The position numbers and the translations under genes were made by a program. 64,000 nt of DNA from Acidobacteriota bacterium (GTDB lineage: Bacteria; Acidobacteriota; Blastocatellia; Pyrinomonadales; Pyrinomonadaceae): NCBI GenBank assembly GCA_019639175.1, contig JAHBSK010000005.1, positions 62,001 to 126,000 of the forward strand, given 5' to 3'. The stretch's first letter is position 1, and the number at the start of each line of letters is the position of its first letter. The notes beneath the pieces were generated by a model. That model searched no databases and had not been told where the DNA came from. It saw only the letters and a list, made by a program, of their open reading frames with translations. Shown here piece by piece: positions 4,162-60,594 of the stretch.

Positions 4162-4246
4162 GCTCAGGTGGCGTAATTGGTAGCCGCGCACGTTTGAGGG
4201 GCGTGTGGAGCGATCCGTGCGGGTTCGAGTCCCGCCCTGAGCACCA
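4162..4246 (+). tRNA. tRNA-Leu (anticodon GAG)
   Basis: The acceptor arms GCTCAGG and CCTGAGC pair perfectly and are followed by A and an encoded CCA. The anticodon stem CACGT/GCGTG encloses the loop TTGAGGG, giving anticodon GAG at 4196-4198. The T arm contains GGGTTCGAGTCCC. The long variable arm fits a class II leucine tRNA. Confidence 0.95.
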
Positions 4247-26139: not shown

Positions 26140-26220
26140 GGCGGAAACCCGAATGGTAATGAGGGTGAAAACACGGCCGATGTAGATAACACACTCCCTA
26201 ACGGTCGTGTTTCCGCCCTT
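26137..26220 (+). promoter_or_regulatory. Structured leader before ubiD-like gene
   Basis: AAGGCGGAAAC at 26137 is mirrored by GTTTCCGCCCTT at 26209, and the inner arms AACACGGCCG and CGGTCGTGTT can form an alternative hairpin. The two structures share bases and end eight bases before the ATG. They could be a terminator remnant or a translational control; no known riboswitch is recognised. Confidence 0.3.
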
Positions 26221-26227
26221 GATCTTT

Positions 26228-27979
26228 ATGCACAAGAATCTTCGTTCTTTTATCGACACGCTAAAACGGGAAGGCGAGATCGTTGAGGTCTCGGCACAGG
26301 CCGATCCGTATCTTGAGATCGCTGAGATACATCGCCGCGTGATCGAAGAAAAGGGAAAAGCTCTGCTTTTTACGAATGTAAAAGGATCGCAGTTTCCGGT
26401 CGTCACCAATCTTTTCGGAACCGTAAAGCGTATCGAGTTGGCGTTTGGCAAACGCCCTCAGGAATTTGTAAGACGGGCCGTTGAAATGGTGGAAGTGCTG
26501 CTTCCGCCAAAGCTCGGCAAGCTCTGGGAATACCGCGACATGGGCAAAACCGCCCTCAAACTCGGCACAAAACGAGTCAAAAATGCTCCTGTCCTTGAAG
26601 TAAAACAGCCTGAACCCGACCTTGAAAAACTGCCGTTCCTTCAGCTTTGGCACGAGGACGGCGGCTATTTCAACACGCTGCCGCTTGTCTATACCGAAAG
26701 CCCTTCGTCGGGCAAACACAATCTCGGCATCTACCGAATGCAAAGATATGACAAGACGACGACCGGTATGCACTGGCAGATCGGGAAAGGCGGCGGTTTT
26801 CATTATTTTGAGGCAGAACAGCGAAACGAACCTCTGCCCGTGACCGTTTTTCTCGGCGGGCCGCCGGCTTTGATACTTTCCGCCATTGCGCCGCTGCCGG
26901 AAGACGTGCCTGAACTGATGCTGGCTTCGCTGTTGGCGGGTGGAAAGATCGGGAAAACCTTCGCCGACAGGGATGTCGGCGTTCCATTGATCGCCGAAGC
27001 CGAGTTCGCGCTTGTCGGCCACGTCCCGCCGCATGAGCGGCTGCCCGAAGGCCCGTTCGGCGACCATTACGGCTACTATTCTCTGACACACGACTATCCG
27101 GTCTTTCACACCGATGCCGTTTTTCACCGCAAGGACGCCATCTATCCGGCAACCGTTGTCGGCAAACCGCGTCAGGAAGATTTTTTCATCGGCGATTATT
27201 TGCAGGAACTGCTCTCGCCGCTTTTTCCGGTGGTTATGCCCGCCGTTCGCGACCTTTGGAGCTATGGCGAGACCGGATTTCATTCGCTGGCGGCGGCGGT
27301 TGTAAAAGAACGCTATGCCCGCGAGGCGCTTTCCGCCGGTTTCCGCATTCTTGGCGAAGGCCAGCTTTCGCTGACGAAATTTTTACTTTTAACAGACACG
27401 CCCCAGGATCTTCGCGATTTCAAAACTCTTTTCGAGCATATCCTTGCTCGCGTGGAATGGCACCGTAACCTGTTCATTTTTTCGCAAACCGCTTTTGATA
27501 CGCTAGATTATGCAAGCGGCAAGATAAATCATGGCAGCAAGGCGATATTGATGGGAATGGGCGACGCCAAAAGGGAACTGGCGCGTGAGTTCAAAGGCGA
27601 ACTTCCCGCCGGAGCCATTAAGGCCGAACCGTTCTGCGGCGGCTGTCTGGTCGTGAAAGGAACAACTTACGAGAACGACAAGGAACTTGCCGAAAGGCTT
27701 GCGCGCTCAGATGCGTTTGACGAATGGCAAATGGTTGTTATCCACGATGACATTAGCTATGCCTCATCGGTTGAAAAATTCCTGTGGGCAACATGGACAC
27801 GGTTCGATCCTGCCAGAGATATAACCGCTCGCGAAATTAATGTTCAAAACAACCACATTGGATATTCGGCACCTGTGTTCATCGACGCTCGCATGAAAAC
27901 CTGGTATCCGAAAGAGGTCGAACCTCGCGAGGACATAGTCAAACTTGTGGACGAAAGGTGGACGGAATATTTCGGCTAG
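26228..27979 (+). CDS. UbiD-family decarboxylase
   Basis: A 583-residue prenylated-FMN-dependent decarboxylase. Family landmarks include MHWQIGKGGGFHYFEAE, the ligand-rich EGPFGDHYGYYSLTHDYPVF and the C-terminal region with YASSVEKFLWATWTRFDP. Such proteins remove carboxyl groups from aromatic acids in ubiquinone or menaquinone synthesis. A menaquinone role is plausible for this phylum but cannot be proved here, and no flavin prenyltransferase (UbiX) gene is adjacent. The ATG at 26228 is preferred over a GTG at 26207. Confidence 0.9.
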   Translation: MHKNLRSFIDTLKREGEIVEVSAQADPYLEIAEIHRRVIEEKGKALLFTNVKGSQFPVVTNLFGTVKRIELAFGKRPQEFVRRAVEMVEVLLPPKLGKLWEYRDMGKTALKLGTKRVKNAPVLEVKQPEPDLEKLPFLQLWHEDGGYFNTLPLVYTESPSSGKHNLGIYRMQRYDKTTTGMHWQIGKGGGFHYFEAEQRNEPLPVTVFLGGPPALILSAIAPLPEDVPELMLASLLAGGKIGKTFADRDVGVPLIAEAEFALVGHVPPHERLPEGPFGDHYGYYSLTHDYPVFHTDAVFHRKDAIYPATVVGKPRQEDFFIGDYLQELLSPLFPVVMPAVRDLWSYGETGFHSLAAAVVKERYAREALSAGFRILGEGQLSLTKFLLLTDTPQDLRDFKTLFEHILARVEWHRNLFIFSQTAFDTLDYASGKINHGSKAILMGMGDAKRELAREFKGELPAGAIKAEPFCGGCLVVKGTTYENDKELAERLARSDAFDEWQMVVIHDDISYASSVEKFLWATWTRFDPARDITAREINVQNNHIGYSAPVFIDARMKTWYPKEVEPREDIVKLVDERWTEYFG

Positions 27980-28008
27980 ATTCCGTTGATGTATGGTCCT
28001 ATAAATTG

Positions 28009-28020
28009 CCACTAGCTTTA
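28009..28020. repeat. Left half of hairpin split by IS1182, with duplicated loop
   Basis: CCACTAGC followed by TTTA. Together with TTTA-GCTAGTGG at 29773-29784 it reconstitutes an 8-base-stem palindrome with a TTTA loop. TTTA is the 4-base target duplication flanking the insertion sequence. Confidence 0.85.
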
Positions 28021-29772
28021 GAGCCTGTGTCAAAACTATTTAAAAACTTTATCAAAGAAGGAGACGTAAAAGAAATGAGGGGAGGGAGAGAGGCAAATGG
28101 GATATATCGGGGGAGTGGAGCGAGGGCAGGGGATGATGTTTCCGGCGACGTTGGATGAGTATGTGAGAGGGGAGAATCCGGTGCGTGTGATAGGGGCGTT
28201 TGTGGAGAATCTGCCGATCAGGGAGATGGGATTTGTGAGAGGGGAACCGGCGGAGACGGGACGTCCTGGATACGATCCGAGAATGATGCTGGCGGTGTAT
28301 ATATGGGGGCATTTGAACGGGGTTCGGTCATCGAGGCGGCTGGAGCGGGAGTGCGGGCGGAATGTGGAGTTGATGTGGCTGAGCGGGCTGCTGCAGCCGG
28401 ATTTCAAGACACTGAGCCGGTTTCGCAAAGACAACAGCGAGGGGATAAACAATGCATTGGTGAAGTTTCGGGTATGGTGCGAAGAGGCGGGATTGTTCGG
28501 CAAGGACCTGGTAGCGATAGACGGAAGCAAGTTCAAGGCGGTGAACAGCAAGTCGAGAGCGTTGACGCAGGAACAGCTTACAAAGCTGATAGAGCGGGAG
28601 AAGGCGGAAGTTGACAAGTATCTGGCGGAGCTTGAAGAGGCGGACAATGCTGACGAAGGAGAAGAAAGAAAATTAACGGCAGAGGAGATAAAGGAAAAGA
28701 TCAGAGGGCTTGAGGAGCATCTGAAAAAGCACGAAGAGGCACGGGAAGGCCTGGCGGAAAGCGGAGAGAACAGGGTGTCGCTGACTGATCCCGAAAGCAG
28801 GATGATGAAAACCTCGAAGGGATCGGATGTCAGTTACAACATCCAGACATCGGTTGACAGCAAGCACGATCTGATACTGGATGTTGAGGTGACGAACGAT
28901 GTCAGCGATCAGGGATTGCTGGCAAAGATGGCAATGCGGGCGAAGGAGATATTGGGGGTCGGGGAATTGAAGGTAACGGCGGACGGCGGATATTTTGACG
29001 GCGATGAGATAAAGGCGTGCGAAGAAGAGGACATAGAGACATATGTATCAATACCGGAATCAAAGGCTGCCGAATCAAAGGGGATATTTCCATTGACGCA
29101 GTTCGAGTACAACAAGGAAAAAGACGTGTATGCATGTCCCGCCGGAGCACAGATGAAGAGGACAGGGAAACCGGTAAAAAATGGACGTGCCAACAGTAAG
29201 GAGTACTACAGATATACGACAAAGGCGTGTTCCGGCTGCCCGCTGCGGGCACAATGCACGACGAGCAAGTACGGCAGAACTGTAAAACGCTGGGTGCACC
29301 AGGAAGTGGTCGACCGGCTGCGTGAAAGGATGGCGGAAAAGCCCGAAATAATAAAGAAGCGAAAGGCAATTGTCGAGCATCCGTTCGGGACGATAAAGGT
29401 GGGAATGGGGCACGAGCGGCTGCTGATGAAGGGGATCAAAGGAGTCGGGACGGAGATAAGACTGACCGTTTTGACCTACAATATCAAGCGGGTGATGTCG
29501 ATCTTCGGAATCCCTGCGATGATCGAAAAACTCAACGGACAAAACCGGTTGACACAAAACGCATATGCCTGAAAAAACCAGCAAAACCGCATTTACCGGG
29601 CTGTAACAGGCAAAAAACAAACAATTTATCGCGGTCAACAAAGAATTTGGCTAAACTGAGAACAAAAATATATGCAAAGCACCAAAGCCGGCAAAACCTT
29701 TGAATGACATCCCGACATGCTGTTCAATCGCGGCTTAATAAAAACATTAACCCAGAGTTTTGCCACAGGCTC
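28021..29772 (+). mobile_element. IS1182-family insertion sequence, complete
   Basis: A 1752-base element with 17-base terminal inverted repeats differing at one position (GAGCCTGTGTCAAAACT left, GAGCCTGTGGCAAAACT as the inverse of the right end). It carries one intact transposase gene and about 180 bases of non-coding tail, and is flanked by a direct TTTA duplication. The near-perfect ends and intact gene indicate recent insertion. The target was the loop of a short palindrome at the left edge of a REP-like array. Confidence 0.93.
28097..29572 (+). CDS. IS1182-family transposase
   Basis: 491 residues, full length. DDE residues are visible: Asp142 in LVAIDGSKFKAVNS, the second Asp in KVTADGGYFDGDE near 295, and Glu427 in VEHPFGTIKVGMGH. 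Between the last two lies a Cys cluster (ACPAG, then CSGCPLRAQC) characteristic of this family. The N-terminal domain has DFKTLSRFRKDN. Codon use is rich in AGG and GGA compared with neighbours, as expected for a mobile gene. Confidence 0.95.
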   Translation: MGYIGGVERGQGMMFPATLDEYVRGENPVRVIGAFVENLPIREMGFVRGEPAETGRPGYDPRMMLAVYIWGHLNGVRSSRRLERECGRNVELMWLSGLLQPDFKTLSRFRKDNSEGINNALVKFRVWCEEAGLFGKDLVAIDGSKFKAVNSKSRALTQEQLTKLIEREKAEVDKYLAELEEADNADEGEERKLTAEEIKEKIRGLEEHLKKHEEAREGLAESGENRVSLTDPESRMMKTSKGSDVSYNIQTSVDSKHDLILDVEVTNDVSDQGLLAKMAMRAKEILGVGELKVTADGGYFDGDEIKACEEEDIETYVSIPESKAAESKGIFPLTQFEYNKEKDVYACPAGAQMKRTGKPVKNGRANSKEYYRYTTKACSGCPLRAQCTTSKYGRTVKRWVHQEVVDRLRERMAEKPEIIKKRKAIVEHPFGTIKVGMGHERLLMKGIKGVGTEIRLTVLTYNIKRVMSIFGIPAMIEKLNGQNRLTQNAYA

Positions 29773-29997
29773 TTTAGCTAGTGGTGTTTTGAAACATTGA
29801 CAATAAAGGCTTTAGCCGAATATGGAAAATTTGATTTCCCTATGGCTTTACCCCTTTTGAGCTAAAGCTCTTGGAAAATTATCTATCAGAAATTCGGCTA
29901 AAGCCGGTGTGTTTTTTGCATCTCTAACCTCCAGCTAAAGCGGGAGGCAATTTAAAAGCGGGCAAAGCCACAAATATCTACGGAACCTGGAATTTCT
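29573..29997. other. IS tail plus REP-like array, no gene
   Basis: The first 200 bases are the non-coding right end of the IS1182 element. The rest, to the metallophosphoesterase start, is filled by short palindromes built on GCTTTAGC; no protein-coding frame is credible. Confidence 0.8.
29777..29947. repeat. REP-like array of GCTTTAGC palindromes
   Basis: It contains GCTAGTGG (right arm of the split hairpin), GGCTTTAGCCGAA at 29808 with its perfect 13-base inverse TTCGGCTAAAGCC at 29893, the palindrome GAGCTAAAGCTC at 29859, and CCTCC-AGCTAAAGC-GGGAGG at 29928-29947. The shared core resembles bacterial REP sequences. No REP-associated tyrosine transposase is seen in this window. Confidence 0.7.
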
Positions 29998-30885
29998 ATG
30001 AAAAAATGGCTTAAGCGGATCGGCATTGTAATAAGCGTCCTCATACTGCTTGCGGCGGCATTTCTTTCGTATGCATATTTTATCGAACCGCGACAGTTTG
30101 TGATCGTTGAGGAAACGCTTGCCGTTCCGCATTGGAACAAAGAACTGAACGGCTTTCGCGTCGTGGTCATCACCGATCTGCACACCGGTTCCAACTACGC
30201 TCCGCCTGAACGCATCCGCTACGTGGTCGAACAGGCCAATGCTCAAGATGCCGACCTGATCGTCCTGACAGGCGATTACGTCAGCGAGTCAAAATGGGAC
30301 CGCGAGGCACGAAATAAGCCCGAAGGAACCGACCGCACTGAGCTAAAAGTGCCGGTTGAAACTATTGCCGAAAGCCTGAAAGGGTTCAAGGCAAAATACG
30401 GCGTTTATGCAATTATCGGCAATCACGACTGGTATCACAATGAGCAGAAGATACACCGCCTTTTTGAAGAAATTGCCGGCATAAACGTCCTGCAAAATGA
30501 AGTTGCCGAGATAGATGTCAATGGTGAAAAAATTCGTCTTTGGGGACTTGAAGACCTTTACCGCAATCGCCGCGTTCCGGCAGAACCTTTTGAGGCTATC
30601 GAGGAAAAACGCAATATCATAGTTCTGACGCATAACCCTGATTCGCTGCTTCAGGCGCCCGAAGGTTTTTCGATAATGTTTGCCGGACATTCACATGGCG
30701 GCCAGCTTAATTGGCCGATCATCGGCCCGTTTGCGATCTTTAACGATCCGCGATTTATGGACGGCCACGCCGTTGTTGACGGCAAACACGTCTATGTTTC
30801 CAGCGGTGTCGGCACCAGCGTCCTGCCGTTTCGTTTTCGCGTTCCGCCGGAGATAAATGTCGTCACTCTTAATTCCGCCGAATAG
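29998..30885 (+). CDS. Membrane-anchored metallophosphoesterase 1
   Basis: Calcineurin-like phosphoesterase of 295 residues with one N-terminal membrane helix (8-27). Metal-binding motifs in order: DLHTG near 60, GDYVS near 92, GNHDW near 142, THNPD and GHSHGGQ near 235. The layout matches the YkuE/YaeI group, which acts on lipid or UDP-lipid phosphates at the membrane, though the substrate is unknown here. It starts a tandem pair with a homologous gene five bases downstream. Confidence 0.92.
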   Translation: MKKWLKRIGIVISVLILLAAAFLSYAYFIEPRQFVIVEETLAVPHWNKELNGFRVVVITDLHTGSNYAPPERIRYVVEQANAQDADLIVLTGDYVSESKWDREARNKPEGTDRTELKVPVETIAESLKGFKAKYGVYAIIGNHDWYHNEQKIHRLFEEIAGINVLQNEVAEIDVNGEKIRLWGLEDLYRNRRVPAEPFEAIEEKRNIIVLTHNPDSLLQAPEGFSIMFAGHSHGGQLNWPIIGPFAIFNDPRFMDGHAVVDGKHVYVSSGVGTSVLPFRFRVPPEINVVTLNSAE

Positions 30886-54195: not shown

Positions 54196-54583
54196 AGTGG
54201 AGCAGGCCGGACGGTCGCTGTTCATTTGAACAGAGGAAAGTCCGAACACCACGGGACAGCGGACCGGGTAACGCCCGGGCACATCGGCAAATGCCGCGTG
54301 TGACGACAAGTGCAACAGAGAACAGACCAGCCCTTACGGGTGATGGGTGAAACGGTAAGGTAAGAGCTTACCGGCGCGATCGGTAACGGCCGCGGCCAGG
54401 CAAACTCTCCGCGGTGCAAGACCAAATAGGGAAACGAAAAGCGGCGTCCCTCCGCGTTCCGGCCCTCGGGCCGGTCACGTTTCCGGGTAGGTCGCTAGAG
54501 CCGCTTGGTAACAATCGGCCAAGATGAATGATCGTCGCCCGCCAATGGCGGGAACAAGATTCGGCTTACAGGCCGGCTCCACT
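54196..54583 (+). ncRNA. rnpB: RNase P RNA (class A)
   Basis: The RNA subunit of RNase P, which matures tRNA 5' ends. P1 arms AGTGGAGC and GCTCCACT pair across the full length. Conserved core words in order: GAGGAAAGTCCGAACACC, ACAGAGAACAGACC, GTGAAACGGTAAGGTAAGAGC, GACCAAATAGG, GGTAGGTCGCTAGAGCC, AGATGAATGATCGTCGCCC and GATTCGGCTTACAGGCCG. A T-rich GGCCTTTTTG after the 3' end can act as terminator. Confidence 0.96.
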
Positions 54584-54637
54584 AAAACAGGCCTTTTTGT
54601 TCGTACCCGAAATCCATACAGGAGATCATGAAACCCT

Positions 54638-60356: not shown

Positions 60357-60431
<75 letters not shown>

Positions 60432-60519: not shown

Positions 60520-60594
60520 TGGAGCGGGAGACGAGGGTCGAACTCGCGACTTCAACCTTGGCAAGGTTGCGCTCTACCACTGAGCTACTCCCGC
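60520..60594 (-). tRNA. tRNA-Gly (anticodon GCC)
   Basis: Minus strand: acceptor GCGGGAG/CTCCCGC, discriminator T, encoded CCA. Loop TTGCCAA gives anticodon GCC; T arm contains GTTCGAC. Confidence 0.96.

What the first reader, a model, noticed from the sequence alone, without database searches (positions are those of the whole stretch)
28009..29784. IS1182 element inserted in the loop of a hairpin, duplicating the loop
Outside the 17-base inverted ends lie CCACTAGC-TTTA and TTTA-GCTAGTGG. Without the IS they make an 8-base stem with a TTTA loop. The 4-base duplication is exactly the loop, so the transposase seems to recognise a cruciform or stem-loop and cut its tip. The target is one unit of a GCTTTAGC REP-like array, which would supply many harmless sites.
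Basis: seen in the sequence. Interest (0 to 1): 0.65.

Follow-up and report, generated by a model that had tools for sequence, protein, structure and literature searches.

The report
Jumping gene aimed at DNA hairpins
A bacterial jumping gene has landed exactly in the middle of a mirror-symmetric DNA repeat, copying the four central letters, and its relatives in many bacteria do much the same, which suggests that its enzyme reads symmetric DNA and cuts at the centre.

Summary
An IS1182-family element (window 28021-29772, 16/17-bp ends) is flanked by CCACTAGC-TTTA and TTTA-GCTAGTGG. A second, internally identical copy in the same genome has CCACTGGC-TGAA / TGAA-GCCAGTGG: other loop, compensated stem change, same geometry. 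A third, cut by a contig end, shows CCACCAGC-TAAA. The uninterrupted hairpin is a genus-wide repeat: 238 places in 36 of 41 genomes, against 2 for a reversed control. So the stems are host target, not IS.

In 93 non-redundant insertion sites (91 from relatives, mostly 41-45% protein identity) the duplication is exactly 4 bp in 77 and centred on a dyad axis, but in most relatives 4 bp is not the loop: 52 of 84 sites have no run of four pairs near the axis. Both half-sites share one consensus (outward CTTTCGCCTG). Shuffling shows that this preference explains about nine tenths or more of the pairing; a small real excess remains. Best reading: a symmetric transposase complex reads a dyad and cuts with a 4-bp stagger at its axis; the loop match reflects the host repeat's 4-nt loop. 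Palindrome targeting by IS1182 elements is already known.

The parts
28021..29772 (+). IS1182-family insertion sequence, 1752 bp
   Evidence: Boundaries from the inverted ends and from comparison with the second copy C4:49141-50916, identical from end to end of the IS
28021..28037 (+). left terminal inverted repeat GAGCCTGTGTCAAAACT
   Evidence: 16 of 17 complementary to 29756-29772
29756..29772 (-). right terminal inverted repeat
28097..29572 (+). transposase, 491 aa; D142, D296 and E427 invariant in an 8-sequence alignment (likely DDE triad)
   Evidence: NF033551 424.7 bits, cut-off 270; Pfam DDE_Tnp_1_6, DUF772, DDE_Tnp_1; alignment A1
28017..28020 (.). target duplication TTTA, left copy
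   Evidence: the C4 copy has TGAA twice
29773..29776 (.). target duplication TTTA, right copy
28009..28016 (.). left half of target hairpin, CCACTAGC
   Evidence: host repeat: uninterrupted CCACYRGC-N4-GCYRGTGG at 238 places in 36 of 41 genus genomes, control 2
29777..29784 (.). right half of target hairpin, GCTAGTGG
29808..29905 (.). middle of the host composite repeat, with ends GGCTTTAGCCGAA / TTCGGCTAAAGCC
   Evidence: found at 4 places in this genome, 3 of them next to a copy of this IS
29928..29947 (.). second end-hairpin of the composite repeat, CCTCCAGCTAAAGCGGGAGG, not occupied
   Evidence: C17:91928-91947

Best explanation
The element is an IS1182-family insertion sequence with a dyad-targeted transposase. 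A symmetric transposase complex docks on two inverted half-sites (here CCAC(T/C)(A/G)GC on each strand; in proteobacterial relatives outward CTTTCGCCTG) and joins the element's 3' ends to the two strands 4 bp apart, straddling the dyad axis. Gap repair makes a 4-bp duplication of the axis sequence. In this genus the best available dyads are the end-hairpins of a dispersed host repeat whose loops are 4 nt, so duplication and loop coincide. Shown: target geometry, duplication length, host origin of the hairpin, shared half-site preference. Inferred: the dimer, the stagger, and that the DNA need not be extruded as a cruciform.
For: Window and C4 copies: same geometry, different loop, compensated stem. 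Uninterrupted hairpin genus-wide; the exact C4 target 20-mer is uninterrupted in another genome (L175). Relatives: of 103 loci, 84 gave a TIR pair, 75 had both flanks, exact 4-bp duplication in 61 of 75; later plasmid hold-out 18 of 20 exact (24 fetched, 4 unusable); in 93 non-redundant sites 77 exact at 4 bp and at most 1 at any other length from 2 to 8. Palindromy: 5.75 of 11 pairs per site against 2.81 at random axes; 6 or more pairs in 53 of 93 against 4%. Left and right half-sites have nearly the same base preferences, and a matrix from the first set puts 13 of 20 hold-out sites above the 99.9th background percentile. Sequence preference alone predicts 431 of 477 pairs in 82 sites. The two own sites score in the top 0.5% and 0.9% of background for the proteobacterial matrix. 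A structure-only rule would have many other targets: contig C17 alone holds 14 perfect stems of 8 bp or more with 4-nt loops, about 157 if extrapolated to the genome, yet all 3 copies are in one hairpin family.
Against: Residual within-site covariation is real in the combined set: 477 pairs against 430.8 +- 11.2, no shuffle in 5000 as high; P 0.002-0.014 within protein clusters and 0.024 without L253/L254. L254 is a perfect 12-bp palindrome that fits the matrix poorly. The own targets differ from the relatives' consensus at several positions. 16 of 93 sites lack an exact duplication. No biochemistry exists here for this element; no solved structure is related by sequence at E 0.01.
Confidence: 0.75

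Rival explanations
1. Structure recognition: the transposase binds an extruded cruciform or hairpin and nicks its tip, so that the loop is duplicated (first reader; pathway c of the model in PMC5678879).
For: Perfect stems at both complete own copies; perfect palindromes of unrelated sequence at L254 and L015; small excess covariation; IS1272 of the same family targets hairpins of unrelated sequence (PMC5678879 passages and section 22; PMC4923244 passages).
Against: Most relatives' sites are poor hairpins: 52 of 84 without a run of four pairs near the axis. Duplication stays 4 bp whatever the loop. About nine tenths or more of the pairing follows from half-site sequence preference. Many other hairpins in this genome are unused.
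Confidence: 0.2
2. The 8-bp 'stem' is part of the element's own longer inverted ends.
For: From one copy alone the inverted repeat runs on through the flank (29 nt, 90%).
Against: The flanks differ between internally identical copies, and the uninterrupted hairpin occurs at 238 places in the genus, where the transposase search gave only a partial match (30-32%) in one other genome, G016, and none in the rest.
Confidence: 0.02
3. Selection, not targeting: insertions elsewhere were lost because they broke genes, and hairpin repeats are merely safe.
For: The repeat here lies between genes, and the closest relative lacks it with the two genes nearly abutting.
Against: Selection for safety would not put three copies on the axis of one hairpin type (6 known sites in 3.8 Mb), nor give 77 of 93 sites a duplication on a dyad axis.
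Confidence: 0.03

Closest known systems
IS1272 / TnSha1 (IS1182 family), hairpin-replacing transposition (PMC5678879, PMC4923244)
   Same: Same family; targets inverted repeats with little shared sequence; often intergenic hairpins
   Different: IS1272 removes the stem-loop wholly or partly and leaves no duplication; here the whole hairpin is kept and 4 bp at its axis are duplicated, an outcome that PMC5678879 drew only as hypothetical pathway c
ISPsy8 (IS3) and ISRm22 (filed IS4) in REP sequences (PMC1525189, passages read)
   Same: Insertion at the symmetry axis of REP palindromes with a short direct repeat (3 and 6 bp)
   Different: Other transposase families and other duplication lengths
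ISPse1 and ISCaa15 (IS1182 family; PMC3281130, PMC3196728, table rows seen in passages)
   Same: Same family, 16-18 bp inverted ends, 4-bp direct repeats
   Different: No palindromic target was mentioned in the passages I saw
ISPa11, ISPpu9, ISPpu10 (IS110 family) in REPs (PMC1525189)
   Same: REP-specific insertion
   Different: IS110-family transposases; ISPa11 lacks the usual direct repeats

Membership tests
IS1182 family | IS1182-type transposase | tested here: met
   NF033551 424.7 bits over residues 8-468, cut-off 270
IS1182 family | conserved DDE residues | tested here: met
   D142, D296, E427 invariant among 8 sequences; their assignment as the triad is inference
IS1182 family | terminal inverted repeats of about 16-18 bp | tested here: met
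   16 of 17
IS1182 family | 4-bp direct repeats as in ISPse1 and ISCaa15 | tested here: met
   TTTA and TGAA in the two complete own copies; 77 of 93 sites
IS1272-type hairpin replacement | stem-loop deleted and no duplication | tested here: not met
   Both stem halves and a 4-bp duplication are present
IS110-family REP targeting | IS110-type (DEDD) transposase | tested here: not met
   Pfam and NCBIfam matches are DDE_Tnp_1 / IS1182
REP/BIME-like host repeat (the target) | dispersed short palindromes | tested here: met
   36 of 41 genus genomes, 238 places, control 2
REP/BIME-like host repeat (the target) | mobilised by a RAYT / TnpA-REP transposase | not tested
   no search made for such a gene

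The most novel reading that the evidence does not exclude
IS1182 transposases form one system in which the target is any DNA with two-fold symmetry, read partly as sequence and partly as a truly self-complementary structure, always cut 4 bp apart across the axis. IS1272's hairpin deletion and this element's axis duplication would be two outcomes of one structure-guided reaction (strand joining at the foot or at the tip of the same cruciform). L254 and L015, perfect palindromes of unrelated sequence, and the residual covariation are what this predicts.
Probability: 0.2. Interest if true: 0.65.

Novelty: new member of a known kind. Interest (0 to 1): 0.42.

Why it matters
Palindrome targeting in the IS1182 family is cited from a review and was shown for IS1272, where the hairpin is destroyed. 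Here the hairpin survives, so the cut sites can be read to the base: 4 bp across the axis. The half-site consensus over some 90 sites makes the open question 'sequence or cruciform?' testable with a handful of mutant targets, and would explain why such elements collect in dispersed hairpin repeats.

Tried and rejected
The single-protein genome scan found nothing, so an alignment of 8 was used. Phage records: no match at E 1e-20. An abundant proteobacterial REP as the explanation for the GTCCGCT...AGCGGAC consensus: rejected, since 7 of 33 host genomes hold an exact site, 10 places in all, against 2 control places. My first boundary rule gave 55 of 78 exact duplications because of GTGTGT ambiguity; a rule that uses the terminal repeats alone gave 61 of 75. 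More distant IS1182 members were looked at by eye only: L015 and L018 in GTAGGGGCG-type hairpins, L020/L024/L026 at CTAG without a long palindrome, L014 apparently with a 3-bp duplication; no counts are drawn from them.

Dropped before counting: 11 of 28 viral loci (L146-L156, mostly partial) were not entered; of the 103 entered, 19 gave no acceptable TIR pair and 9 lay at contig edges; 2 sites with the same flanks were merged (75 to 73). Of the 24 hold-out loci 4 gave no usable ends. For the covariation test sites with fewer than 3 of 4 matching duplication bases were left out (93 to 84, of which 82 not own). The genome scan kept 80 of 582 relatives, and 28 plasmid places from 218 records were fetched, so the sample is mostly Proteobacteria. 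The taxonomy of the window's genome was not determined.

Full report
WHAT IS THERE. The window carries an intact IS1182-family element at 28021-29772, between a UbiD-type gene (26207-27979) and a metallophosphoesterase gene (29998-30885), all on the + strand. Its ends match at 16 of 17 positions.

COPIES IN THE SAME GENOME. The genome (3.80 Mb, 21 contigs) has a second full copy, C4:49141-50916. Base-by-base comparison over 1776 bases finds six differences, all in the 12 flanking bases on either side; the elements themselves are identical. Its flanks are CCACTGGC-TGAA / TGAA-GCCAGTGG: the stem has an A-to-G change on one side and the matching T-to-C on the other, and the loop differs but is still duplicated. 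A third copy runs into the end of contig C14 and shows CCACCAGC-TAAA on its one visible side.

THE TARGET BELONGS TO THE HOST. The uninterrupted pattern CCACYRGC-N4-GCYRGTGG occurs at 3 places in this genome, with none for the reversed pattern, and in the genus in 36 of 41 genomes, 238 forward places against 2 for the control. CCACTAGCTTTAGCTAGTGG, the window's own target, is among the sites listed there. The C4 target CCACTGGCTGAAGCCAGTGG is uninterrupted in another genome (L175). The hairpin is one end of a composite repeat: end-hairpin, about 20 bp, GGCTTTAGCCGAA ... TTCGGCTAAAGCC, about 20 bp, second end-hairpin. TTCGGCTAAAGCC marks four such units here, and three of the four carry the IS. 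The closest orthologous locus (G014) has neither repeat nor IS, and the two genes nearly abut, so the repeat itself is a presence/absence unit.

RELATIVES. No close relative turned up: 5 of 98 relatives' genomes and 13 of 396 phylum genomes (the latter at E 1e-40), the own genome counted in both, match the protein, the non-own matches at 52% identity or less and often partial. More distant ones (mostly 41-45%) are common in Proteobacteria: plasmids 218 records, 80 loci kept of 582, viral contigs 28. I set the element's end from the terminal repeat alone and read the flanks. Of 103 loci (the two own ones included), 84 gave a TIR pair and 75 had both flanks; the four bases next to the element are identical on both sides in 61, three of four in 8, fewer in 6. 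A later sample of 24 plasmid copies, not used in setting the rule, gave 20 usable and 18 exact. In all 93 non-redundant sites an exact repeat at length 4 occurs in 77, and at any other length from 2 to 8 in at most 1.

SYMMETRY. Around the 4 bp the flanks pair at 5.75 of 11 positions on average, against 2.81 at random axes in the same loci; 53 of 93 sites have six or more pairs, against 4%. Left and right halves have nearly the same base preferences: outward position 5 C, 6 G, 8 C, 10 G, consensus CTTTCGCCTG. The centre itself is mostly not palindromic as a 6-mer: TGGCCG in 26 of 67 sites, GGGTCG in 14 of 67. The inner positions are often unpaired. By a simple criterion (first run of four pairs) the loop is 4 nt in 3 of 84 sites, 6-10 in 20, 12-18 in 9, and no such run exists in 52. 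So the duplication is 4 bp at the axis whatever the loop; equality with the loop is a property of the host repeat in this genus.

SEQUENCE OR STRUCTURE. If only symmetric sequence preference mattered, re-dealing right halves among sites should keep the pairing. In the first 65 sites it nearly did: 328 against 315.8 +- 8.4, P 0.083; 0.18 within TIR groups; 0.037 within duplication groups. With the hold-out, 82 sites give 477 against 430.8 +- 11.2, with no shuffle of 5000 as high, and P 0.0024 within duplication groups. Within protein clusters P is 0.002-0.014, and 0.024 without the two most palindromic sites. Sequence preference thus explains some nine tenths of the pairing or more, and a modest real excess remains. 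L254 sits in a perfect 12-bp palindrome that fits the consensus poorly, and the distant L015 in a long perfect palindrome. In the other direction, this genome offers many hairpins: 14 perfect stems of 8 bp or more with 4-nt loops, and 64 with loops of 3-8 nt (34 to 45 in three Markov controls), in contig C17 alone, yet all three copies chose one family. The own sites fall in the top 0.5% and 0.9% of background for the relatives' half-site matrix, suggestive of a shared CC(A/G)C(T/C) core.

MECHANISM. Shown: geometry, duplication, host origin of the hairpin, half-site preference. Inferred from what is generally known of DDE transposases (recalled): a symmetric complex, two staggered strand joinings 4 bp apart across the axis, gap repair. 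Cruciform extrusion is neither needed by most sites nor excluded.

WHAT IS KNOWN. PMC5678879 (passages and section 22) and PMC4923244 (passages) show that IS1272 of this family targets hairpins and removes them wholly or partly without duplication; the former draws loop duplication as a hypothetical pathway, and both cite a review by Siguier and colleagues for palindrome targeting by some IS1182 members (the two Siguier reviews I tried are not held). PMC1525189 (passages) shows axis insertion into REPs with 3- and 6-bp repeats for ISPsy8 and ISRm22. 4-bp repeats for IS1182 members are in PMC3281130 and PMC3196728 (passages). I found no paper with the half-site consensus in the listings; most subscription journals and ISfinder are outside that library.

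VERDICT.

Noticed in passing
window 28002-29958 without the IS; also C4:48983-49161, C17:270039-270216: Composite repeat of about 230-260 bp with a hairpin at each end and a 98-bp middle with 13-bp inverted ends; its hairpins and middle motif are dispersed through the genus and it is absent from the orthologous locus of G014, so it looks like a MITE/BIME-like mobile unit.
   Followed up: partly
L254 (Paracoccus marcusii plasmid): IS1182 copy in a perfect 12-bp palindrome GTGTTCAAAAAC-GATC-GTTTTTGAACAC that does not fit the half-site consensus.
   Followed up: partly
   Followed up: no
L020, L024, L026 (same phylum): Another IS1182 subgroup with CTAG direct repeats and no long palindrome.
   Followed up: no
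   Followed up: no
window 54199-54584: RNase P class A RNA gene; tRNA genes at 4162-4243, 60360-60431 and 60523-60594.
   Followed up: no
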